Assembly: GCA_015231915.1 (NCBI GenBank)
Contig: JADGAR010000015.1
Coordinates: 12,622-72,901 of the forward strand
Source of the DNA: Magnetococcales bacterium
GTDB lineage: Bacteria; Pseudomonadota; Magnetococcia; Magnetococcales; Magnetaquicoccaceae
Reading direction: 5' to 3'
DNA: 60,280 nt
This document shows, piece after piece, positions 1,762 through 34,105 of the stretch. The number at the start of each line of letters is the position of its first letter. Position 1 is the stretch's first letter. The translations under genes were made by a program, and so were the position numbers. The notes below the pieces were generated by a model. It had not been told where the DNA came from. It searched no databases and saw only the letters and a list, made by a program, of their open reading frames with translations.

Positions 1762-1826
1762 TCCATGCGTGATGAATTTGTCCGGTTTTTCCCGTCTCCA
1801 CATCAATTTAAAAAGGTTTGCACATT

Positions 1827-3248
1827 ATGTCCGACCAAGATGCGATTCGTAATGCCCTGGCCATGATGGAATCCAACGATGTCCGTTTCGTGGATTTCCG
1901 CTTCACCGATTTCCACGGGAAATGGCAACACATCTCCACCCCCGCCAAGATGGTGACCGAGGAGGTGTTCGAAACCGGCTTTGGTTTCGATGGCTCCTCC
2001 ATTGCCGGCTGGTGCGAGATCAACCAGTCGGACATGGTCTACAAGCCGGATGCCTCCACCGCCACCCTGGATCCCTTCACCGATGTCCCCACCATGATCC
2101 TCATCTGCGACGTGGTGGATCCCTTCACCGGCGAGGGCTACAGCCGCGATCCCCGCGCCGTGGCCAAACGCGCCGAGGCCTATCTCAAGTATACCGGCAT
2201 CGGTGACACGGCCTACCTGGGGCCGGAAGCCGAGTTCTTCATCTTCGACAACGTTCGTTTCGCCACCCGGATCAACAAGGTCAGTGTGGAAATCGACTCC
2301 ATCGAAGGGGCCTGGAACACCGACACCGATTACGAAGAAGGCAACACCGGCCACCGTCCCGGCATCAAGGGCGGCTACTTCCCGGTCCAGCCGGTGGACT
2401 CCTATCAGGACATGCGCTCCGAGATGTGCATGATCATGGAAGAGATGGGCATCACCATCGAATTCCATCATCACGAGGTCGCCACCGCCGGTCAGTGCGA
2501 AATCGACATGCGCTTTTCCGACCTGCTCAGCATGGCCGACAACATCCAGAAGTACAAGTATGTCGTCCACAACGTGGCCCATCAACAGGGCAAGACCGTC
2601 ACCTTCATGCCCAAACCCATGAGCGGCGACAACGGCTCCGGCATGCACGTCCACATGTCCATCTGGAAGAACGGCAAGCCCCTGTTCGCCGGCAACCAGT
2701 ACGCGGACCTCTCCGAGATGGCGTTGCACTTCATCGGTGGCATCAAGAAGCACGCCCGCGCCCTCAACGCCTTCACCAACTCTTCCACCAACTCCTACAA
2801 GCGCCTGATCCCCGGTTTCGAGGCGCCGGTGCTGCTGGCCCACTCCGCCCGCAACCGTTCCGCCAGCATTCGCATCCCGGCCTCCACCAATCCCAAGGCC
2901 AAGCGCTGCGAGATCCGTTTCCCGGATCCGTCCGCCAATCCCTACCTGGCCTTCGCCGCCCTGCTGATGGCCGGCCTGGACGGCATCGAAAACAAGATCG
3001 ACGCCGGTCCCCCCATGGACAAGAACCTCTACGACCTCCCGCCGGAGGAATTGAAGGGCATTCCCACGGTGTGCGGCTCCCTGCGCGAGGCCCTGGAGTC
3101 CCTCGACAAGGATCGTGAGTTCCTCAAGAAGGGCGATGTCTTCAGCGACGACCTCATCGACGCCTGGATCAAGCTCAAGATGGAGGAAGTCTACAAGGTC
3201 GAGCACACCCCACACCCGATGGAGTTCACGCTCTACTACAGCGTGTGA
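1827..3248 (+). CDS. glnA: Glutamine synthetase type I
   Basis: A 473-residue enzyme that makes glutamine from glutamate, ammonia and ATP in the cytoplasm. Visible signatures are FDGSSIAGW near the N terminus, GPEAEFF, the catalytic block [29 protein letters not shown], and [10 protein letters not shown], which carries the tyrosine adenylylated in GSI-beta enzymes. This implies GlnE-type control. The ATG at 1827 is chosen because AAAAGG lies ten bases upstream; a TTG at 1818 is in frame but has no spacing for a ribosome site. It follows amt, probably co-transcribed, and is followed by a strong hairpin at 3274-3303. Confidence 0.97.
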
Positions 3249-3854: not shown

Positions 3855-5201
3855 ATGAATGATTATAATATCAGATTAAATAGTACTGATTCGTTTTCAT
3901 CGAAGACATTATGGATGCTGCGTGGTAATGGGCTGAGTGGGATTAAACCATTACCATCAGAAATTATGAAATATGAAAAAGAGGAAAATGTTTTACCAAG
4001 TGAGTCGATTCTTCTTCCAGATGCCATTTTATTAGCTTCTTTTTCGGAAACTATGCATCATCTCTATTATGTATCGCCTGACAATCCATGCCTTGTACGT
4101 GCAAGGTATGTTCCTAATCCATTTGCTTCTAGTAAAATATTCGAAAAGGAGATGAAGGAACAGGGCGAACTATGGGAAATACTAGAACCAGATGAAATTG
4201 AGGCAAAAATATTATTTATTGAGCCAATTTATCAATTAATTGCTATTGGCAAAAATTTGATAGTTGTCACGTCATGTGTCAATAATAATGAAATTATTTT
4301 TACATTTCATTTATGTCCGTTGGATGTCGTAAAAGGGTTTCAACTAGGTCATAATCCTTCAGAATTCAGTCAGAGTAAACTTAAAATTAAAAACATCAAT
4401 TTATCTCAATTCTTTAGAGCGGTAGAAATAGGTAAGGCTATTATTATTTATGCTACAAATATAGAAAATAATGGAGTGTATTGGGGAGAATTTTTGCCGG
4501 GAAGTTTTCTTAAAATGAGGTATCTTGTAAACAAAGGGCGGTTTTTTGGAGCAGATTTTCCGCAAAAAATTATATTTGAAATCGTTCAATTTAATATATT
4601 TAAAATTATATTGATATGTTATTCAGAGGATAAGGATGTATTTTTTAATATAAACCATATGATTAATAGAGAAGAAATAAGTGGAGGGATAGATTTGGGG
4701 TTAAGTGTAAGTAAATTTGGTAAAGAAAGGGTTTCTATTGAATTGTATCCAAAAAAAAATCAATTTTCTTTGCGTGGAGTCAAACAATTTACGGTGTTAA
4801 AAGTAGAGCCTGCTTTAATTCCATTCTTTAATACATATCATGATGAATACGATACTTTTATTTTGGTCCCAGCATTAGAAGAGAAGCGAATATGGACTTA
4901 TAATATTCAATTAACAAACCCAAGTGAATCAGGAGATTTCATACCACTTCTTGGTGGCGGTATGATTACTGAACAAAAATATGAATCAAATATGTTAAAA
5001 TTATCAATTAATCGATGTGATTCGATAATTAATATCCGTGATAGCATTATTTTATTTGGTGAAGCCGGAAAACCAGGATGGAAAGTGCTTTTAATGCCAA
5101 TAATGATATTTGCAAGGAGGTCACCAGAATTGTTTAGAAAAGTTATTATAGAGCGAGGACGCTCTTTTGGCAGGTCGTATGCGTTTTATACAACGACGTA
5201 A
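3855..5201 (+). CDS. Cassette protein A: uncharacterised beta-repeat protein
   Basis: A 448-residue cytoplasmic-looking protein with no signal peptide or membrane helix and no family I recognise. It contains at least five recurring units of hydrophobic strand, polar turn and second strand, for example LIVVTSCVNNNEIIFTFHL, AIIIYATNIENNGVYWGEFL, IILICYSEDKDVFFNINHM, TFILVPALEEKRIWTYNIQL and SIILFGEAGKPGWKVLLM. Such spacing suggests a beta-propeller, often a sensing or protein-binding scaffold (inference). The ATG has only a weak ribosome site. It is the first gene of a four-gene operon, 18 bases before the kinase-like gene. Its codon use is very AT-rich, unlike the surrounding chromosome, indicating transfer. 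Confidence 0.75.
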   Translation: MNDYNIRLNSTDSFSSKTLWMLRGNGLSGIKPLPSEIMKYEKEENVLPSESILLPDAILLASFSETMHHLYYVSPDNPCLVRARYVPNPFASSKIFEKEMKEQGELWEILEPDEIEAKILFIEPIYQLIAIGKNLIVVTSCVNNNEIIFTFHLCPLDVVKGFQLGHNPSEFSQSKLKIKNINLSQFFRAVEIGKAIIIYATNIENNGVYWGEFLPGSFLKMRYLVNKGRFFGADFPQKIIFEIVQFNIFKIILICYSEDKDVFFNINHMINREEISGGIDLGLSVSKFGKERVSIELYPKKNQFSLRGVKQFTVLKVEPALIPFFNTYHDEYDTFILVPALEEKRIWTYNIQLTNPSESGDFIPLLGGGMITEQKYESNMLKLSINRCDSIINIRDSIILFGEAGKPGWKVLLMPIMIFARRSPELFRKVIIERGRSFGRSYAFYTTT

Positions 5202-5219
5202 AAAATTTTTGGTGATCAA

Positions 5220-7412
5220 ATGCAAGAATTTTATGATTTCAAGAAGGCAGTTCTAACACAGCTTTATAAAACGTCAACATCGTACTCTGATACAATTTCA
5301 GCGCTGCTTCCAATGCTTCAAAATCTGTACTCCTCTGGTTGTGGAAAAAAATTTTCAGATTTTTCGTTATCATTACCGACTTGTGAATTTGAAAGTTTGT
5401 CTTGGTTGTCAGAGGCAATAACAACAATTAGCCTGTGTCATTTTCTTCCGTTAAAGTATTTGACCCAAATTTGCAACGTAATGGATTATTATGGGTTGTT
5501 TTTCTTGTCTATAGAGATAGCTGAGAAACATGTTGATCAGTTTTCAATTGGCACTGAAGAAAGGTTTCAGCTTTTAAAAATTATAGCAAAGTCATATAAA
5601 AATGATAGTAAATTTGAAGAGGCTAGAAAATGGTATCGTCAGGCAATCCAAGAAGCACATGATTGTGGTAATAAGTTTTATATAGATTATTTTTTATTGT
5701 TATTTGCGAAATTATGTAATGATTTTCAGCAGCGCCAAGGTTGGTATATAACCTATCACAAAATTGCGTACCAAAGATTCGCAAAGAATGCAAAATTCGA
5801 AAAAAAACCAGATCCGTTTAATACTTGGCGCTCTATTTGCGTTGATTCATATTCAAAAGCCCTTTATAATTATTTTCCAAAGATAGCAGAGCGAAATTTT
5901 AGACAGTTACTGAATGATCCAGATCTTCCAGCAAGTAGAGAAAGCAGGATTAAATCGCACTTGTATTCGTGCAGGATTATTAAACAGATCATGACAGATC
6001 GCTCTCTGAATGAAGCTGTTATTTACAAAAATTTATCAAATTTTAAGAAGGTTGTAGACTCGCTCCGCCCGGAATGGAATAGATTGGCATATTCAGTTAG
6101 ACTGGTACAATATTTTGAATTAGTACGCAATGTTGCTGATAAATTATACAATAAAAATAAAGGCACAATATATAATGATTTTCAGGGATGGTTGTTTCCT
6201 TACTGTCACTCAGATCTGCTAGAAGCATATCAATCTTCTGAATTGTTGTCTGATTGGAAAACAAGCTCTCGCATATCTTATGAGATTGCGAAATACTACC
6301 AAATATTAATTAAATTATCATGCGTTAATGATCAAGCTTTGTTAGTTTCTTATTATAAAAAAATAAGAGAATCTTTAGTTGTTTGTATTAATATTTTAGA
6401 TAAAAAATCAGAAAAGTTACCAGATTTATACGTGAGTGCATTATTGGATTTGGCTGATTTAGAGCATAAATCTAATGACTACACATCGTCTGCTAATTAT
6501 TGTTTGAAAGCATATGATTTTGTAAAAAAATTGTCGCTTGGTGTTCAAAATGATGAAAGTTCGTTAGAGAAGGCAATGTCAAGATTTGAAACAGAAGTCC
6601 CTTCTGAATTTTCTGTACTTACATTATCAGAAAAGAAGGCGCTCCTGGAAAGTTTAAGACAAGATTATAGAGTGTTATTGCAAAGAATGCTTTTGATTGC
6701 CGAAAAATTGCATGACATCCAGAAAGATAGGATTGCGAAAGATTTTAATAATTTTGCGTCTTCGCTTTATAATCATCTTGGTTTACATACATTGAGCAAT
6801 ATTGTGACTTCAGTCGACATACTGTCCAACCGACTTGATGGGAGGATAAAAGAACTTCAGCAACAAGTTAAAGATATGCGATCTCAAGGTGATAACCTTT
6901 TTCCGGTAAAGGCAATTAATGTATATGATGTCGTAGATAAATATTTAAACACACTAAAACAAAGAATGTCATATGATTTGTTTGTTAATATAAATAATAT
7001 TATCGATAAAAATTGCATGATTAATTTTAATGAAGAGTTGTTTGTGACGTTGATTAAAAATATTATCTATAATGCTGAAAAAATTATTGATGCGGCAAAA
7101 ATTGATGAATCCAAGGTAAATATTTCTTTTTCCAACCGTGTTACGTCAGGTGTGTTTTCTCTAGAATATTGCGATAATCTTGGAAATTTCGATGAATTTT
7201 TTAATGTAATTGATCGGATTAATAATAATATTGAAATAATTGATAATCCTTCAAATGGTATAAGTGGTTCTGGTGTGGGTCTGTTGTATAGTAAGCGTGC
7301 AATAATGTTGGTCAGTAAAATTGCTCCTGCTGAATTGTTGGGTTGGAGTTTGATTGGTAATGATGCAAGCAAGACTTTAACTATACCTTTGTCACGTTTG
7401 TCTGAGTTGTGA
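5220..7412 (+). CDS. Cassette protein B: TPR-GHKL histidine-kinase-like protein
   Basis: 730 residues, soluble, no membrane helices. Residues about 80-480 are helical repeats of TPR type (for example FEEARKWYRQAIQEA and YTSSANYCLKAYDFV). A helical stretch near 510-560 (LYNHLGLHTLSNIVTSV, with His519 and His523, then a coiled coil RIKELQQQVKDM) resembles a dimerisation/phosphoacceptor region. The C terminus is a GHKL ATPase: N-box LIKNIIYNAEKIIDAA (about 605-620), a diverged G1 box EYCDNLGNFDEF (about 648), and G2 box GSGVGLLYSKRAI (about 682-694). It is plausibly the kinase for the receiver domain of protein D. The phosphoacceptor histidine is not certain, and the weak G1 box could mean an ATP-binding switch rather than a kinase. 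Confidence 0.8.
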   Translation: MQEFYDFKKAVLTQLYKTSTSYSDTISALLPMLQNLYSSGCGKKFSDFSLSLPTCEFESLSWLSEAITTISLCHFLPLKYLTQICNVMDYYGLFFLSIEIAEKHVDQFSIGTEERFQLLKIIAKSYKNDSKFEEARKWYRQAIQEAHDCGNKFYIDYFLLLFAKLCNDFQQRQGWYITYHKIAYQRFAKNAKFEKKPDPFNTWRSICVDSYSKALYNYFPKIAERNFRQLLNDPDLPASRESRIKSHLYSCRIIKQIMTDRSLNEAVIYKNLSNFKKVVDSLRPEWNRLAYSVRLVQYFELVRNVADKLYNKNKGTIYNDFQGWLFPYCHSDLLEAYQSSELLSDWKTSSRISYEIAKYYQILIKLSCVNDQALLVSYYKKIRESLVVCINILDKKSEKLPDLYVSALLDLADLEHKSNDYTSSANYCLKAYDFVKKLSLGVQNDESSLEKAMSRFETEVPSEFSVLTLSEKKALLESLRQDYRVLLQRMLLIAEKLHDIQKDRIAKDFNNFASSLYNHLGLHTLSNIVTSVDILSNRLDGRIKELQQQVKDMRSQGDNLFPVKAINVYDVVDKYLNTLKQRMSYDLFVNINNIIDKNCMINFNEELFVTLIKNIIYNAEKIIDAAKIDESKVNISFSNRVTSGVFSLEYCDNLGNFDEFFNVIDRINNNIEIIDNPSNGISGSGVGLLYSKRAIMLVSKIAPAELLGWSLIGNDASKTLTIPLSRLSEL

Positions 7413-7417
7413 TAATA

Positions 7418-7968
7418 ATGAAAAAAAAAATCCTATCTTTTTTACGGGTCCTGCAAATAGTGGAAAATCTGAATGGGTTGAATATTATTTGGGTAAAATA
7501 TATTCTCCAATTTATTTTGGAGTCTTACCGTTTCGTCCAGAATTTGAGCTGATTATTACGCGCCATAAGAAGCGCAGATCATCAAATTGGCGATTAATTG
7601 AAAGTATTGGTGATCTGGATGCGGATATTAAGTTGATTAAAAAAACATTATCTATGCAAATTTCAGGTCAATTAGCTGTTTTTATTGATGGTCTTACTAA
7701 CTGGGTATCTTTTATTAATGAGAGTGAGTGCGATTTTGTTCGAACTGTTGACATGTTGTCTCTTTCGCTTGGGAATTTGATCAACCATAATACAGCTTGT
7801 CAATGGGTGCTTATGGATAGCGTTCCATGTGAAAAAAGTGAGGCTTTTTCTATCATTTCATCACTGCATCTTGTGTTACCATATCATGTCAACAATTTAT
7901 TAACCATCAAACTTAGTGGAGATAAAAATGAAGACAAACACCGAATATACAATTCTTTGGATCGATGA
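7418..7968 (+). CDS. Cassette protein C: CobU-like P-loop nucleotide kinase (frameshift-dependent start)
   Basis: The protein resembles adenosylcobinamide kinase/guanylyltransferase (CobU). It has Walker A GPANSGKS (codons at 7447-7470), TRHKKRRSSNWRLIES matching the CobU His-containing RHxxRRxxxW block, and VFIDGLTNWVSFI matching the Walker B-like VLVDCLTLWLSNL. The Walker A frame has no ATG, GTG or TTG upstream of it; it is open only from 7381. An ATG at 7418, five bases after gene B, lies in another frame and enters ten consecutive A residues (7421-7430). A -1 slip there, or one extra A, joins MKKK to NPIFFTGPANSGKS. The TTG at 7489 would delete the P-loop. It overlaps gene D by 41 bases. 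No cobalamin genes are nearby, so a nucleotide-handling role in this system is more likely than B12 synthesis. Confidence 0.7.
7421..7430 (+). repeat. A10 homopolymer, potential slippage or phase-variation tract
   Basis: Ten A residues directly follow the only nearby ATG (7418-7420) of the CobU-like gene. In the sequence given, the tract puts the start out of frame with the P-loop; a tract of 11 or 8 would restore it. It could be programmed or transcriptional slippage, a phase-variable switch, or a sequencing error. Confidence 0.7.
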
Positions 7969-9406
7969 TCATTGGAGTGAAAAACGTGATGTCGGTGACA
8001 CTAGTGCAAGTGCGGCGTATGATAATTTATGCTCATTTAGTGACAGGCTCCAGCATAGTCTTGGTGCTTATTCTAGGATGATTCGATGGGTCAAGGTGAT
8101 TGCCCCCTCAGCCGCAACTGCAATGATACTTGGAGAGAAGATTGATTTTGCAATAGTTGATTTTGAAGTTCCGTCGGTTGACAAAAAGTATGATTTGCCG
8201 CGAGTTATTGATGATATTATAGGTAAATGCATACCGTTTTGTTTTTTAACCAACTATCCTGGTGGAGTAAAAATATTCGTCGATCTTCTTAGTAAAGAAA
8301 AGCTTAGTCATTTCAAAGGCATCTATACAAAAGAATTAGCAGATGTCTCTCGTCTAGGATCTTGTTTATTGTCTTTTTTTCAAATTCCAAGCTTTTCAAT
8401 CGTCCATTTAAGTGATCTGCATTTTTCTTCTGTGCAAAACGGAAGTACAACGAGTCTTGCTGGCGAGCAAGTGCTGCTTTATGAAGCTTTGATTGATTTT
8501 TTTGAAAAGCATAAGTCGCAGTTTAATTTTGACGCTCTTGTAATTACTGGTGACATGGCTGCAAAAAAACCTGAGGTTGATCTTCAAATCGCTCGTGAGT
8601 ATATTCGCTTAATTGCTGAAAAAACTATTTCGTTGAAAAATTTAGAGAGGATGTTTATAGTTCCTGGCAACCATGATTTAACATGGAGCAATTTTGACGC
8701 TTTACAAATTTCTTCAAACCCTTGGAAAAATTATGTTGACTTTTTTAATGCTGTGTATATTGGGTATGATGGTGCTATTCAACAGCTTGATGGATGGACA
8801 GGAAGTGGATTACCTGCAACTTTAACAGGTCCTGGATTATCCTGGAGAAGAGAACTATCATATCCCAATATTGATATAATTGGTATATCAACTGTAAATG
8901 CTTCAGAAACTAGCAAGGGTAATGGATTGGTTACGCAAAATCATATAAGTTATATAAAAGGTAAGTGGAGTAACAGTCCAGGGCATTTTAAGACTAGAAT
9001 TTTATTGCAACATCATAATATAATGCCTGTTTATTCCGGGTCTACATTAGATAAGAGAACTATTTTGGAAAATCCAGGAAGTATTTTAAATTGTTTGTCT
9101 GCTTGTCACTGTAATATTATATTGTCTGGTCACACACATTTTCCCGAGGTTCATATCCAAGAGGCATATAAGAGAAATCAAACAGGCCTGATTGTTTCTA
9201 AACCTGTTATTTGTATTTCAGCAGGGTCAACTGGCAACGTTTTTGAAAGGCATCCAAATTATTTTAATATTCTCAAATTTCATTCGCTTGATCCTGTCAC
9301 AAAAACCCGAAAATTATCTATTAATCATGTTCAGTATATATCTGACGATGGTAAATGGTCTTTATGCAATGACCCGATTGATTTAACATTGAGTCCCTCG
9401 CAATAA
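7928..9406 (+). CDS. Cassette protein D: receiver domain fused to calcineurin-like metallophosphoesterase
   Basis: 492 residues. Residues 1-145 form a CheY-like receiver: acidic pair D13-D14 (ILWIDDH), phosphoacceptor D78 (FAIVDFEVP), T108 (CFLTNY) and K135 (IYTKEL) are all present. Residues about 155-480 are a calcineurin-like phosphoesterase with every metal motif: D163-x-H165 (HLSDLHF), GD208-209 (VITGDMAAKK), GNHD 247-250, LLQHHN, and SGHTHF. Such enzymes hydrolyse cyclic nucleotides, other phosphoesters or nucleic acids. The start at ATG 7928 is set by GGAG six bases upstream; it overlaps gene C, implying translational coupling. Phosphorylation by protein B probably gates the phosphoesterase (inference). 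AT-rich like its neighbours. Confidence 0.85.
   Translation: MKTNTEYTILWIDDHWSEKRDVGDTSASAAYDNLCSFSDRLQHSLGAYSRMIRWVKVIAPSAATAMILGEKIDFAIVDFEVPSVDKKYDLPRVIDDIIGKCIPFCFLTNYPGGVKIFVDLLSKEKLSHFKGIYTKELADVSRLGSCLLSFFQIPSFSIVHLSDLHFSSVQNGSTTSLAGEQVLLYEALIDFFEKHKSQFNFDALVITGDMAAKKPEVDLQIAREYIRLIAEKTISLKNLERMFIVPGNHDLTWSNFDALQISSNPWKNYVDFFNAVYIGYDGAIQQLDGWTGSGLPATLTGPGLSWRRELSYPNIDIIGISTVNASETSKGNGLVTQNHISYIKGKWSNSPGHFKTRILLQHHNIMPVYSGSTLDKRTILENPGSILNCLSACHCNIILSGHTHFPEVHIQEAYKRNQTGLIVSKPVICISAGSTGNVFERHPNYFNILKFHSLDPVTKTRKLSINHVQYISDDGKWSLCNDPIDLTLSPSQ
9391..9399 (+). repeat. 9-bp direct repeat GAGTCCCTC, right copy
   Basis: Identical to 3656-3664. It overlaps the last codons of cassette gene D, and its TCCCTC pairs with GAGGGA at 9415-9420 in a hairpin spanning the stop codon, which could also serve as a weak terminator. 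Confidence 0.3.
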
Positions 9407-29267: not shown

Positions 29268-29297
29268 TTGACATGGAGAACGATCGTACTCTATATT
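29268..29297 (+). promoter_or_regulatory. Promoter with LexA-box-like operator before the LexA-like gene
   Basis: TTGACA (29268-29273), 18 bases, TATATT (29292-29297). The spacer holds AGAACGATCGTACT, a near-palindrome that is one base from the GAAC-N4-GTTC SOS box (29278-29289). A repressor bound there would block RNA polymerase. Confidence 0.5.
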
Positions 29298-29332: not shown

Positions 29333-29926
29333 ATGGCGCCTGTCAATCGTGACGCCGATCATTTGAATGTTTTGCGGGACTATTATGCCCGCCATCGGGC
29401 GTGGCCGTCGTATGCGCGGCTGGGGGTGGTGGTGGGGGTGACGGCCAAGTCGGCGGTGGCCAAACTGATGCGGCGGCTGGAGACGGCGGGGTATGTGCGG
29501 CGCACCCCGGACGGGGAGTGGACGCCGTGTGACCGGTTTTTCGAGCGTCCTCTGGCAGAGGCTGCGGTACGGGCCGGCCTGCCGGAGATGGCGTTGGACA
29601 CGTCGGAGCAGCCGGTCTTGATCGATTCGTTGCTGGTGGAAAAACCCTCGGTAACGGTGCTGGTGCCGGTGCGGGGGGATTCCATGCAGGGGGCAGGGGT
29701 GCATGACGGGGATTGGCTGGTGGTGGAGCGGGGGCGGGAGGCGGCGGACGGGGCGATGGTGGTGGCCGAGGTGGATGGGGAGTTCACTCTTAAAACTTTG
29801 GTAAAGGAGGGGAAGGGGTGGGCCTTGCATCCGGCCAATCCTGCCTATCCGGTGCTGCGCCCCAGGGAGAGTCTGACGTTGTTCGGGGTGGTGGTCGGTC
29901 TGGTGCGGAGGTATGGGCGGCCATGA
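29333..29926 (+). CDS. LexA-like S24-family repressor
   Basis: 197 residues. An N-terminal LexA-type winged helix (about 10-60, with SYARLGVVVGVTAKSAVAKL) is joined to a S24 serine-protease domain. Ser117 (VRGDSMQGAG) and Lys154 (FTLKTL) are 37 residues apart, as in LexA. An Ala81-Gly82 bond (VRAGLPE) lies 35 residues before the Ser, the spacing of the LexA self-cleavage site. This predicts RecA-stimulated autocleavage and derepression after DNA damage. Its ATGA overlap with the UmuD'-like gene and the downstream umuC suggest it controls the whole cassette. It may or may not be the main LexA. Confidence 0.85.
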   Translation: MAPVNRDADHLNVLRDYYARHRAWPSYARLGVVVGVTAKSAVAKLMRRLETAGYVRRTPDGEWTPCDRFFERPLAEAAVRAGLPEMALDTSEQPVLIDSLLVEKPSVTVLVPVRGDSMQGAGVHDGDWLVVERGREAADGAMVVAEVDGEFTLKTLVKEGKGWALHPANPAYPVLRPRESLTLFGVVVGLVRRYGRP

Positions 29927-30276
29927 TGAATCCGTTGCAGGACGAGGCGATGGACGGGCTGGACCTGACGCGATTGTTGATCGAGCATCGCGAGGCGACC
30001 TTTTTTTGGCGCGTGGAGGGGAGCGCCATGGACGGGCTTGGCATTCATCATGGGGATCTGCTGGTGGTGGATCGGGCCGTGGTTCCGGGGGATGGGAGCG
30101 TGGTGATCGCGGTCCTGGACGGGGGGTTCGTGGTCAGGCAGTTGGTGCGGCGCGGCGGCGTGGTGATTTTGCGCTCCGCGCATCCGGATGATCCGGGGAT
30201 CCGTCTGCGTCCTGGGCAGGATCTGGAGGTGTGGGGGGTGGTGCGCTGGTCGGTGCATCGGGTGGTGGGGCGGTGA
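29923..30276 (+). CDS. UmuD'-like S24 protein, no cleavage arm, catalytic Lys replaced
   Basis: 117 residues. It aligns with UmuD from the IDLNQLLIQH region onward (LDLTRLLIEHREATFFWRV), so the N terminus is already at the processed UmuD' length. The serine is present (Ser34, EGSAMDG), but the general-base lysine of FTVKKL is Arg72 (FVVRQL), so proteolysis is unlikely. UmuD' is the accessory subunit of DNA polymerase V; this protein may be a constitutively active form for the UmuC encoded at 32816. Start ATG 29923 overlaps the LexA-like stop. Confidence 0.8.
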   Translation: MMNPLQDEAMDGLDLTRLLIEHREATFFWRVEGSAMDGLGIHHGDLLVVDRAVVPGDGSVVIAVLDGGFVVRQLVRRGGVVILRSAHPDDPGIRLRPGQDLEVWGVVRWSVHRVVGR

Positions 30277-30286
30277 GGGTTTTTGT

Positions 30287-30315
30287 TTGACATAACAAAA
30301 TGATAATTATATTCT
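30287..30315 (+). promoter_or_regulatory. Promoter before the Septu-like ATPase gene
   Basis: TTGACA (30287-30292), 17 bases, TATTCT (30310-30315) in an AT-rich patch about 40 bases upstream of the ATPase start. The -35 context GTTTGACAT is shared with the promoter at 29268, but the LexA-like palindrome is not. Confidence 0.4.
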
Positions 30316-30355
30316 TTTGGTAAATGACTGCATCCGGCGTGGAGGTGAAAAAGAG

Positions 30356-31963
30356 ATGAACAATCCAGAGGAGAAGACACCTTCCTGTTTCGTCCTGATG
30401 GAGACCGGCGCCGACATGGAGAAACTGTGGGACGCGGTGATCCGGCCCGCCATCGAGCAGGTCGGCTTGCAGCCGTTGCGTGTTGAGGATTTGATCACGG
30501 GCGAGGACTTTGTGCGCGAGATGCTTAGTCAGATTCTGCGCGCCGATGTGGTGGTGGTCGTGTTTAATGTAAAACTTAAATTTTATCCTTTGTCTTTTCT
30601 TATAGAAAATAATAAAAAGACATTATGTTTATTAAATAAAGAAATCAATATTCCAGAACTGTTTGTTAATTTTGAGTGTGCAATATATGATTTAAAAAAT
30701 TTTATTAAGTCTCGTGAAGTCCTGATCCTGGCTTTGGATAATTTGATGCAGCCAGCATTGATTGCTCATCCATCACCAGAGACACAGGCAACACCGGGGA
30801 TACCGTCATTGCCTCTGACATTGCGGCGCATTGAAATCCGCGGGTTTCAATGCATCCAATCCACAGGGGTGGCCGATTTGCCCTCCGATGCCCCGTGGAT
30901 CATCATCACCGGGGATAACGGGGAGGGCAAGACATCGGTATTGCAGGCAATGGCCATTGGTCTCCATGGGGCGGAGGAGGCGGAGATGCTGCTCAAGGGC
31001 AATCCGTCTGCCCGAATCGGAGTCGAGTTACGCGCAACCGGACGATCGGCGGTCAGGAATTTTTCCAGGCAAAATGGTCATTGGATCATGACCGACCATC
31101 GGTTCAAGCCGATCGAACCCTTTGAGCGCGTGGTGGCCTATGGCCCTGCCCGCACGGAGATCCTGGCCGAAACCAGCATGGACAGGGAGATGGCCAGATT
31201 GAGTCCCGTGCGCTCGCTGCTGCAACAAAGAGGCTATTTGGGCAATATCGAGCATTGGTTGAAGATGCGCATCCTGACTGCCGCCGGGGACGACCGCGGG
31301 CAACGGGATGAATTGAGCCGCCAGCGGGCCAGGCGGGTCAAGGAAATTCTGGTCGATTTGCTGCCGGGCGTCACCCGCATGGAGTTGGTGGGGGAGCATT
31401 TCAAATACACGGAAAACGGATACGAAGTGACGGTCCATCAACTCTCTTCCGGGCAGGTCAGCCTGCTCGCCATGGTGGGCGACCTGTTGATCCGGCTGTA
31501 TGCCATGCACCCGGAAGCCGTCGATCCTCAGGATCTGCATGGCATCGTGTTGATCGATGAACTGGATGTCCATCTCCATCCCAGTCGTCAGCGGGCATTG
31601 CCTGGCCAGTTGAGCCGCATTTTTCCCAATGTCCAGTTCGTGGCAACCACCCACAGCGTCATTCCGATCCTGGGGGTGCCGAAGGGTTCGGTGTTTTTGC
31701 GGGCAAAACGTGATCCGGTTACAGGAACGCACCTGGAGAGGCTGGAGATCAACCCCGCCAATCTGCTTCCCAATGCCATTTTGACTTCGCCGCTTTTTGA
31801 CATGGAATCCATTCGTTCCGTTCAGAACCTCAAGTTGGCCGATGTGCACACGGATGACGATTTTCAGGAGGTCCGGTTCAAGGAACGGGTCGATCAGGCG
31901 TTGGAACGACTCGCGCGGATCGATCACGGGATTCCGAAGGATTTTTTGCAGGTCGGGGAGTGA
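30356..31963 (+). CDS. Septu-like (PtuA) AAA/SMC-type ATPase with CFVIMPF-type N-terminal domain
   Basis: 535 residues from ATG 30356 (GGAGGT nine bases upstream). Residues 1-130 (SCFVLMETGADMEKLWDAVI, then SQILRADVVVVVF) resemble the TIR-like/nucleoside-deoxyribosyltransferase-like domains beginning CFVIMPF. Residues about 160-535 are an ABC/SMC-type ATPase: Walker A GDNGEGKTS (186-194), signature LSSGQ (363), Walker B IVLIDELDVHLHP (~397-409), H-loop TTHS. With the HNH gene 4 bases later this matches the PtuA-PtuB Septu anti-phage system. The N-terminal domain contains an abruptly AT-rich stretch (30565-30720), suggesting a mosaic origin. Confidence 0.75.
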   Translation: MNNPEEKTPSCFVLMETGADMEKLWDAVIRPAIEQVGLQPLRVEDLITGEDFVREMLSQILRADVVVVVFNVKLKFYPLSFLIENNKKTLCLLNKEINIPELFVNFECAIYDLKNFIKSREVLILALDNLMQPALIAHPSPETQATPGIPSLPLTLRRIEIRGFQCIQSTGVADLPSDAPWIIITGDNGEGKTSVLQAMAIGLHGAEEAEMLLKGNPSARIGVELRATGRSAVRNFSRQNGHWIMTDHRFKPIEPFERVVAYGPARTEILAETSMDREMARLSPVRSLLQQRGYLGNIEHWLKMRILTAAGDDRGQRDELSRQRARRVKEILVDLLPGVTRMELVGEHFKYTENGYEVTVHQLSSGQVSLLAMVGDLLIRLYAMHPEAVDPQDLHGIVLIDELDVHLHPSRQRALPGQLSRIFPNVQFVATTHSVIPILGVPKGSVFLRAKRDPVTGTHLERLEINPANLLPNAILTSPLFDMESIRSVQNLKLADVHTDDDFQEVRFKERVDQALERLARIDHGIPKDFLQVGE

Positions 31964-31967
31964 GTCG

Positions 31968-32816
31968 ATGGTTCGGGTATGCAAAGCATTTGACGCGATT
32001 CCCGAAGGATTGACGAGCGTGAACGCGGTCCACAAGAAAGAGGCGCTACGCATCGAAGGCAGTAAGCATCATTTTGACAATAACGTGTATGCCCATGCCA
32101 CGGTCAAGGTTGCCCTCAATGCCATCTATCACAACAAGTGCGCCTATTGCGAATCCTTGATCGAGGAACAGGCGGATCGTCGGGTGGAACACTACCGCCC
32201 CAAAGGGGGAGGATATCACTGGCTGGCTTATGAATGGTCCAATCTTCTGCTTGCCTGTGAGAGCTGTAACCGTAAGAAATGGAACCATTTTCCTGTGAAT
32301 GGATCCCGTGTCGCCGCCCCGCCGTCAGAGGAAACGGATTGGCGGCCCGATTCCGGAGTCATGCGTGCGGAACAGCCTTTGCTCCTCAATCCGGAGATCG
32401 ATCATCCCGAAGCACATCTCCGCTTCTCCCCGGACGGTCAAATCCATGCCGTCGATGATAGCGAACAGGGCGTCCAGACAATCAAATACTGCGGATTGCA
32501 GAGGGAAGATCTGGTGTATGCCCGCAAGAAGCAGATTGATTGGTTTCGCAAGCAAATGAAATGCCAATTGAGTATTTTTCTTGATTATTTTTGTAATAAC
32601 CATGATCAGACCGGTGTGACTTTTCAAGCGGCCCTGAGTCTGGGATTTCAGACCATTGCAGAACAAATCAAGGCTGCCCAGCAACCGGATCACCCTTTTT
32701 CCCGTGTCGGTTGGCATATCAACAATGAACCGGAAACGTTTTTGCTGGAGGATATTCCGGCAGGGGAACTGCGCGATGTTGCGCGTTGTACATTGAAACT
32801 GTTAAAAATCATGTGA
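31968..32816 (+). CDS. HNH endonuclease, PtuB-like
   Basis: 282 residues. CAYCES (from Cys58), VEHYRPKGG, YEWSNLLLACESCNRKKWNHF form a complete HNH zinc/metal site, close to Septu PtuB and retron-associated HNH proteins. It likely cuts DNA or RNA when activated by the ATPase upstream. Start ATG 31968 is seven bases after GGGGAG; its stop overlaps the umuC start. Confidence 0.82.
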   Translation: MVRVCKAFDAIPEGLTSVNAVHKKEALRIEGSKHHFDNNVYAHATVKVALNAIYHNKCAYCESLIEEQADRRVEHYRPKGGGYHWLAYEWSNLLLACESCNRKKWNHFPVNGSRVAAPPSEETDWRPDSGVMRAEQPLLLNPEIDHPEAHLRFSPDGQIHAVDDSEQGVQTIKYCGLQREDLVYARKKQIDWFRKQMKCQLSIFLDYFCNNHDQTGVTFQAALSLGFQTIAEQIKAAQQPDHPFSRVGWHINNEPETFLLEDIPAGELRDVARCTLKLLKIM

Positions 32817-34105
32817 TGACAATGACCGGTCGCGCCAACATCGCCCTGATCGACGGGAACAACTTTTACGTCTCCTGCGAGCGGGTGTTCGATCCGGGGT
32901 TGCATTGTAAACCGGTTGTGGTTTTGTCCAACAACGACGGCTGCGCGGTGGCGCGCTCCAACGAAGTCAAGGCGCTGGGAGTCAAGATGGGGGAACCCTG
33001 GTTCCGGTTGCGCCAACTGGCCCAGCAACATGGCATCGTCGGGTTGTCCGGCAATCACGCCCTCTACGTCGATATGTCGCGGCGCATGATGAGCCTGCTG
33101 GCCGGGTTTGGGGCGCGGCAGGAGGTCTATTCCATCGACGAATGCTTCCTCGATCTGGGCAGGGGCGAGGACGTGACCGGATTGGGCAAAACCATGCGCC
33201 AGGAGGTGGCGCGTTGCCTGGGGTTGCCGGTGGGCGTCGGCATCGCCGCCACCAAGACCTTGGCAAAACTGGCCAATCATCTGGCCAAAAAACGCCCCGA
33301 ATACGACGGGGTCTGCAACCTCAACACCATCACGGATGCGGAATGGCCGCCCCTGCTGGCCGGCATCGACGTGGGCGAGGTGTGGGGCGTGGGCGCGCGA
33401 CTCGCGGAAGGGTTGCGCGCCGCAGGCATCCCCCATGTGCTGGCCCTGCGTCAGGCAGAACCGCGCTGGCTGCGCCGACGCTTCTCCGTGGTCATGGAAC
33501 GGATCGGGCTGGAACTGCGCGGCATCTCCTGCCTGGAACTGGGAGAGATCGCACCCCCCAACCGGCAGATTCAGTCCACCCGATCTTTTGGTGAACCGGT
33601 ATATGATATCGACACCTTGGCCGAGGCGGTCCTGAGCTTCGTGCGTCGCGCCGGACAACGGTTGCGGCGGCAGGGATCGGTGGCCGGCGCCCTGCACCTG
33701 TTCATTCGCACCTCTCCCTTTCGGGAGGGGGAGCCGCAATGCCGGCAAGCGATCACCCTGACACTGCCGACACCAACGGCGGACGAACTGCAACTGGCCA
33801 GTGCCGCCAGGCGTGGACTGGAATACATTTACCGTACCGGTTACGCTTATCGCCGGGCCGGCGTGCTGCTGCTGGAACTGGAGAACGCACAAACGCGTAC
33901 CCGCGATCTCTTCGTCGATCCGCAGGCCGAACGCAAGAGCCAGGCCCTGATGACCACCCTGGATGCCATGCGTAACCGGTTTGGCGCCAACATCATCCAT
34001 GTGGCCGGTGAGGGCCGGCAACGGCGCTGGTCGATGCGGGCATCCAACCGCTCCCCGTGCTATACCACCCGCTGGGCCGACCTGCCCACGGCGCGGGCCG
34101 GTTGA
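32816..34105 (+). CDS. umuC: DNA polymerase V catalytic subunit (UmuC-like Y-family polymerase)
   Basis: 429 residues. Catalytic motifs IALIDGNNFYVSCERVFDP, LSNNDGCAVARSNEVKALG and YSIDECFLDL carry the acidic metal ligands; VGVGIAATKTLAKLANHLAKK is the finger/thumb signature; the little-finger domain and UmuC tail (RRWSMRASNRSPCYTTRWADL) are present. It performs translesion synthesis. Its ATG (32816) overlaps the HNH stop, so translation is coupled to the Septu-like pair rather than directly to the UmuD'-like gene 2.5 kb upstream. Confidence 0.93.
   Translation: MTMTGRANIALIDGNNFYVSCERVFDPGLHCKPVVVLSNNDGCAVARSNEVKALGVKMGEPWFRLRQLAQQHGIVGLSGNHALYVDMSRRMMSLLAGFGARQEVYSIDECFLDLGRGEDVTGLGKTMRQEVARCLGLPVGVGIAATKTLAKLANHLAKKRPEYDGVCNLNTITDAEWPPLLAGIDVGEVWGVGARLAEGLRAAGIPHVLALRQAEPRWLRRRFSVVMERIGLELRGISCLELGEIAPPNRQIQSTRSFGEPVYDIDTLAEAVLSFVRRAGQRLRRQGSVAGALHLFIRTSPFREGEPQCRQAITLTLPTPTADELQLASAARRGLEYIYRTGYAYRRAGVLLLELENAQTRTRDLFVDPQAERKSQALMTTLDAMRNRFGANIIHVAGEGRQRRWSMRASNRSPCYTTRWADLPTARAG

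What the first reader, a model, noticed from the sequence alone, without database searches (positions are those of the whole stretch)
29923..34105. Septu-like anti-phage pair embedded between a UmuD'-like gene and umuC
The order LexA-like, UmuD'-like, PtuA-like, PtuB-like, UmuC on one strand, with ATGA or one-base overlaps at three of the four junctions and only four bases at another, places a defence nuclease inside a translesion polymerase operon. umuC is translationally coupled to the HNH gene. The defence module may be turned on by DNA damage, linking phage DNA attack to mutagenic repair.
Basis: partly seen in the sequence, partly recalled or inferred. Interest (0 to 1): 0.76.

Follow-up and report, generated by a model that had tools for sequence, protein, structure and literature searches.

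The report
Septu cassette inserted into umuDC operon
A two-gene anti-phage cassette (Septu) really does sit between the two genes of an error-prone DNA polymerase, but near relatives lack it there and it carries its own promoter-like site, so it looks like a lineage-specific insertion rather than an evolved link between phage defence and mutagenic repair.

Summary
The gene order LexA-like, UmuD'-like, ptuA, ptuB, umuC is real, and ptuAB is a Septu pair (PADLOC PtuA 3e-70, PtuB 4e-59). One junction was misread: UmuD' and ptuA are 79 bp apart, and that gap holds a 10/12 sigma-70-like site plus a strong ribosome-binding site. ptuAB is a ~2.55-kb, AT-richer insertion. The nearest relative (89-94% protein identity) has umuD' and umuC joined by ATGA; of 23 umuC loci in the class, 20 have umuD within 81 bp and only this one holds ptuAB. 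None of 80 PtuA loci or 15 other PtuB places is near umuC or umuD. The host operon has its own LexA-like repressor and a conserved palindrome in its promoter, unlike the CCTN10AGG element at the genome's two canonical lexA genes. The cassette's promoter-like site has neither. Damage-inducible Septu is possible by read-through, but nothing comparative supports an evolved link; umuC partly freed from repression is as likely. Two unreported features: PtuA carries an N-terminal nucleotide-hydrolase/TIR-like domain without its catalytic segment, and the UmuD'-like protein starts already processed and lacks both catalytic residues.

The parts
29268..29297 (+). Operon promoter TTGACA-18-TATATT with palindrome GAGAACGATCGTACTC (29276-29291) in the spacer: predicted operator of the LexA-like repressor
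   Evidence: 11/12 promoter match; same layout in 7 relatives; next best site in the 4-Mb genome has 3 mismatches
29333..29926 (+). LexA-like S24 repressor (197 aa) with winged-helix N-terminus, Ala-Gly cleavage site and Ser/Lys dyad
   Evidence: Peptidase_S24 1e-24; TIGR00498 96 bits, below its cut-off of 111; alignment
29923..30276 (+). UmuD'-like subunit (117 aa), begins where processed UmuD' begins; catalytic Ser->Ala and Lys->Arg
   Evidence: S24 6e-17; PRK10276 1.4e-30; alignment with 7 relatives
30269..32815 (+). Inserted Septu cassette (about 2547 bp); right edge uncertain within 32816-32836
   Evidence: Empty site in G008; GC 0.52 against 0.64-0.66 in flanking operon genes
30287..30315 (+). 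Promoter-like site of the cassette, TTGACA-17-TATTCT, without the operator palindrome
   Evidence: 10/12 match; no palindrome there
30356..31963 (+). ptuA: ABC-type ATPase (535 aa), Walker A GDNGEGKTS, signature LSSGQ, Walker B VLIDELD
   Evidence: PDLC00287 3.2e-70; AAA_21 6.6e-18
30356..30757 (+). N-terminal domain of PtuA (residues 1-134): nucleotide-hydrolase/TIR-like fold lacking the catalytic NxFYELG segment
   Evidence: Alignment; model pLDDT 83.5; Z 11.5-12.9 to DNPH1, deoxyribosyltransferases and TIR domains
31968..32816 (+). ptuB: HNH endonuclease (282 aa)
   Evidence: PDLC00316 4.4e-59; TIGR02646 above its cut-off
32816..34105 (+). umuC: Y-family polymerase V subunit (429 aa)
   Evidence: IMS, IMS_C, DUF4113; PRK03609 1.3e-120

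Best explanation
A type I Septu cassette (ptuA-ptuB with its own promoter) inserted between the stop of umuD' and the start of umuC in one lineage of Magnetococcales-type bacteria. Shown: the family assignments, the empty site in the nearest relative, the lower GC, the promoter-like site inside the cassette. Inferred: ptuAB is made mainly from that site, with some read-through when the upstream LexA-like repressor cleaves itself after DNA damage. PtuA (ATPase) and PtuB (HNH nuclease) then act as an ordinary Septu: a complex activated by infection whose nuclease cuts nucleic acid (phage DNA or a tRNA, depending on the system). A side effect is that umuC can be transcribed from the cassette and is translationally coupled to ptuB instead of umuD'.
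For: PADLOC and NCBIfam hits. Empty site in G008: window 30268 and 32837 lie about 20 bp apart there and umuD'/umuC overlap by ATGA. 20 of 23 class umuC loci have umuD within 81 bp; no other has ptuAB. GC and GC3 fall in the insert. 10/12 promoter-like site at 30287. No umuC or umuD near 80 PtuA loci or 15 other PtuB places. Other ptuAB of the class lie at unrelated sites. Neighbouring genes are signalling and housekeeping genes, not a defence island.
Against: No mobile-element ends, target duplication or integrase were found, so how it inserted is unknown. The join is neat and keeps umuC coupled to an upstream gene, which could reflect selection. The promoter is only a consensus match. No expression or phage data exist.
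Confidence: 0.77

Rival explanations
1. Evolved damage-inducible Septu: the position in the umuDC operon was selected because phage-caused DNA damage triggers self-cleavage of the LexA-like repressor and raises ptuAB together with the mutagenic polymerase.
For: Same strand and tight junctions at ptuA/ptuB and ptuB/umuC; intact LexA-like repressor and conserved operator upstream; no convincing + strand terminator between umuD' and ptuA.
Against: The cassette has its own promoter-like site without the operator; the arrangement was seen in one genome only.
Confidence: 0.12
2. The pair has been recruited to DNA repair or polymerase control (for example PtuA/PtuB acting at damaged DNA with UmuC) and is no longer a defence system.
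For: Position between polymerase subunits; PtuA belongs to the SMC/RecF-like ATPases; one Septu is reported to target nicked DNA.
Against: Best matches are Septu models, not repair proteins; all other umuDC operons of the class do without it.
Confidence: 0.05
3. The pair is an inert passenger: intact in sequence but not expressed or not active.
For: A truncated ptuA remnant in the related G004 shows that such cassettes decay; PtuA's N-terminal domain lacks its catalytic segment.
Against: Both reading frames, the ATPase motifs and the HNH motif are intact and the cassette has promoter-like and ribosome-binding sites.
Confidence: 0.06

Closest known systems
Septu type I (PtuA-PtuB)
   Same: Two-gene ATPase plus HNH nuclease module; PADLOC models match both proteins over most of their length
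   Different: PtuA has an extra N-terminal degenerate nucleotide-hydrolase/TIR-like domain; the pair lies inside a umuDC operon
Retron I-A effectors (Ec78/Eco7, Ec83/Eco4 PtuAB)
   Same: Same PtuA/PtuB families; nearest solved structures
   Different: No reverse transcriptase among the genes examined around it and no Rfam hit near it; Septu models score above the retron ATPase model
UmuDAb of Acinetobacter
   Same: A dedicated LexA/UmuD-type self-cleaving repressor that controls umuDC-type genes through its own operator (PMC4807011, PMC11332147)
   Different: Acinetobacter lacks LexA; this genome has two canonical LexA proteins, and its repressor has a separate UmuD'-like partner
HumD of phage P1 (UmuD' homologue)
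   Same: UmuD-type subunit made without the N-terminal arm (recalled, and HumD model matches weakly)
   Different: Chromosomal; also lacks both catalytic residues

Membership tests
Septu type I | PtuA-family ABC-type ATPase | tested here: met
   PDLC00287 235.5 bits, 3.2e-70
Septu type I | PtuB-family HNH endonuclease next to ptuA | tested here: met
   PDLC00316 198.5 bits, 4.4e-59, 4 bp downstream of ptuA
Septu type I | No reverse transcriptase upstream (distinguishes from Septu type II, the I-A retron) | tested here: met
   Upstream genes are S24 proteins; other nearby genes are signalling genes
Septu type I | Protects against phage | not testable with these tools
   Needs an infection assay
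Damage-inducible (SOS) operon, for ptuAB | Transcribed from a LexA-type promoter | tested here: inconclusive
   Operator upstream of the LexA-like gene, but ptuAB has its own promoter-like site
Damage-inducible (SOS) operon, for ptuAB | Global LexA box of this genome (CCTAATATTATTWAGG) at the operon | tested here: not met
   Exact only at the two lexA genes; only window match is a 3-mismatch site at 4437
TIR or nucleoside deoxyribosyltransferase/hydrolase (PtuA N-terminus) | Fold | tested here: met
   Z 11.5-12.9 to DNPH1, deoxyribosyltransferases and TIR domains
TIR or nucleoside deoxyribosyltransferase/hydrolase (PtuA N-terminus) | Catalytic glutamate in the NxFYELG-type segment | tested here: not met
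   Segment missing in this PtuA and in the G004 remnant, present in the 8 related domains

The most novel reading that the evidence does not exclude
A Septu variant whose ATPase carries an inactive nucleotide-binding domain (DNPH1/TIR-like) as a sensor and whose expression rises through a dedicated LexA-like repressor, so that phage-caused DNA damage and altered nucleotides both arm it alongside polymerase V.
Probability: 0.06. Interest if true: 0.7.

Novelty: new variant of a known kind. Interest (0 to 1): 0.36.

Why it matters
It shows a defence cassette landing neatly inside a repair operon without a recognisable mobile element, and gives a filled/empty pair of sites (this genome and G008) on which effects on defence and on mutagenesis could be tested. 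It also shows that PtuA carries exchangeable N-terminal domains (TIR, TIR plus SIR2, or a degenerate nucleotide-hydrolase-like domain), for which I found no description in the papers searched.

Tried and rejected
A close-relative scan with full PtuA in genome contigs found nothing; an alignment query worked. The single-sequence fold of whole PtuA was useless, pLDDT 34.5. Search for mobile-element ends or target duplications at the insert: only short, chance-like repeats. Retron reading rejected: no reverse transcriptase among the genes examined. Global LexA box at ptuAB: none. The genome-wide scan for that box gives only the two lexA genes exactly; the 3-mismatch hits are no more than the reversed control. 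Defence-island reading rejected: neighbours gave only weak domain-level PADLOC matches. Literature: no paper found that describes Septu inside umuDC or PtuA with a TIR-like N-terminus; the held library is incomplete, and the Septu structure paper cited by others was not held.

Full report
Observation. Five co-directional genes lie at 29333-34105: a LexA-like S24 protein, a UmuD'-like S24 protein, PtuA, PtuB and UmuC. The Septu assignment is strong: PADLOC PtuA model PDLC00287 scores 235.5 bits over residues 153-517 and PtuB model PDLC00316 scores 198.5 bits over residues 1-258. The nearest solved relatives by sequence are PtuA and PtuB chains of retrons Ec78 and Ec83 and of Septu.

The cassette is an insertion. 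In the nearest relative, G008 (LexA-like 93%, UmuD' 94%, UmuC 89% identical), the sequences that flank window 30268 and 32837 lie about 20 bp apart, with an ATGA that ends umuD' and starts umuC. G008 has no PtuA match. In the class, 23 umuC places were found in 22 genomes: 20 have umuD within 81 bp of umuC, two (G038 and G039) have repeat-filled gaps of about 2 kb and 0.34 kb, and only the window has ptuAB. Those two cases show that this junction is entered by unrelated DNA too, so position alone does not imply a functional link. The insert has GC 0.52 (ptuB GC3 0.56), the flanking operon genes 0.64-0.66 with GC3 0.78-0.80. No integrase, inverted ends or target duplication were recognised.

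The arrangement is not recurrent in what could be searched. None of 80 PtuA loci from bacterial and archaeal genomes, held with up to 5 kb on each side, encodes a UmuC, UmuD or LexA-like relative at E 1e-5, and none of the 15 other PtuB places in 398 genomes of the phylum has one within about 1.5 kb at E 1e-4. Limits: contig ends cut some flanks, only the best 80 PtuA loci were kept, and about half of them have a recognisable PtuB nearby. Other ptuAB of the class sit beside a sensor kinase gene (G012, G016), and a truncated ptuA lies next to a gene that looks like thiL in G004 (gene name by recall).

Regulation. The operon promoter TTGACA-18-TATATT (29268-29297) holds the palindrome GAGAACGATCGTACTC exactly in its spacer. 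The same layout recurs in seven relatives, while the DNA upstream of the -35 box has diverged in most. In the 4-Mb genome the next best matches have three mismatches. The genome also has two canonical lexA genes above the NCBIfam cut-off, each preceded by CCTAATATTATTWAGG. So this operon is probably controlled by its own repressor and not by the global LexA; this is inference from sequence. The repressor keeps the Ala-Gly site and the Ser/Lys dyad, so damage-triggered cleavage is likely. The cassette has its own promoter-like site, TTGACA-17-TATTCT at 30287-30315, with GGAGGTG ahead of the ptuA ATG and no such palindrome. Five promoter-like sites were found in 5.6 kb where shuffles give 2.3 on average, so a match alone is weak; its 10/12 score, its place and the 0.35 GC of the gap support it. 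No terminator-like site lies on the + strand between umuD' and ptuA, so read-through from the operon promoter is possible.

First, the UmuD'-like protein begins where processed UmuD' would begin; the relatives other than G008 carry an AGFPSPA-type arm with a cleavage site. Its catalytic Ser is Ala (shared with G008) and its Lys is Arg (only here). It reads as a ready-made subunit that cannot cleave, so the usual processing checkpoint appears to be gone in this lineage. Second, PtuA residues 1-134 form a separate domain. A model built on ten sequences (pLDDT 83.5) matches DNPH1, nucleoside deoxyribosyltransferases and TIR domains (Z 11.5-12.9, rmsd 2.2-3.7, 110-128 residues aligned). Related domains in other proteins have an ADLTxANxNVFYELG-type segment; this PtuA and the G004 remnant lack it, so catalysis is unlikely and ligand binding or assembly is the better guess. 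Among PtuA relatives elsewhere, L031 has a canonical TIR domain (9e-23), L042 a TIR, and L041 TIR plus SIR2, so the N-terminus is a swappable module.

Mechanism. By homology PtuA and PtuB act together. In the E. coli B88 Septu both the ATPase and the HNH residues are needed and tRNA-Tyr is cut in the variable loop (PMC13096335). Retron-Eco7 PtuAB also depletes tRNA-Tyr, while Septu of E. [quoted passage not shown] The target here is unknown. Plain defence from an inserted cassette is most likely, with weak damage-linked read-through as a by-product; an effect in the other direction, umuC partly freed from its repressor by the cassette's promoter, is as likely and equally untested.

Verdict. 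A real Septu variant in an unusual place, most likely put there by one insertion. The claimed link between phage defence and mutagenic repair is not excluded but has no comparative support.

Noticed in passing
window 3855-9406: Low-GC (about 0.33-0.44) four-gene block between a glutamine-synthetase-like gene (1818-3248) and a TPR gene: a 448-aa protein without Pfam match, a 730-aa protein with a weak TPR match whose C-terminus looks like a kinase ATPase domain, a 159-aa protein, and a 496-aa protein with a calcineurin-like phosphoesterase (5e-16). It recalls signalling-type defence operons such as Detocs, by recall only.
   Followed up: partly
window 29923-30276: UmuD'-like protein starts pre-processed and has lost both catalytic residues (Ser->Ala shared with G008, Lys->Arg only here).
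   Followed up: yes
window 29276-29291; L115 and L116: Two different LexA-type operators in one genome: CCTAATATTATTWAGG at the two canonical lexA genes and GAGAACGATCGTACTC at the umuDC operon.
   Followed up: partly
L205 2413-4406 (G038): About 2 kb without ORFs of 80 aa, made of direct repeats (spacings 113, about 302 and 342 bp), between a LexA-UmuD fusion gene (242 aa) and umuC.
   Followed up: partly
L206 427-1577 (G039): Inverted repeats of 65-87 nt around a umuD-like gene, with a 0.34-kb gap before umuC; looks MITE-like.
   Followed up: no
L041 3453-6287: TIR, SIR2 and PtuA-type ATPase in one 944-aa protein (uncultured Thiodictyon), with a PtuB relative in the same locus.
   Followed up: no
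L024 1946-2929 (G004): Truncated ptuA (327 aa) with the same degenerate N-terminal domain and no ptuB found: a decayed cassette at another site.
   Followed up: partly
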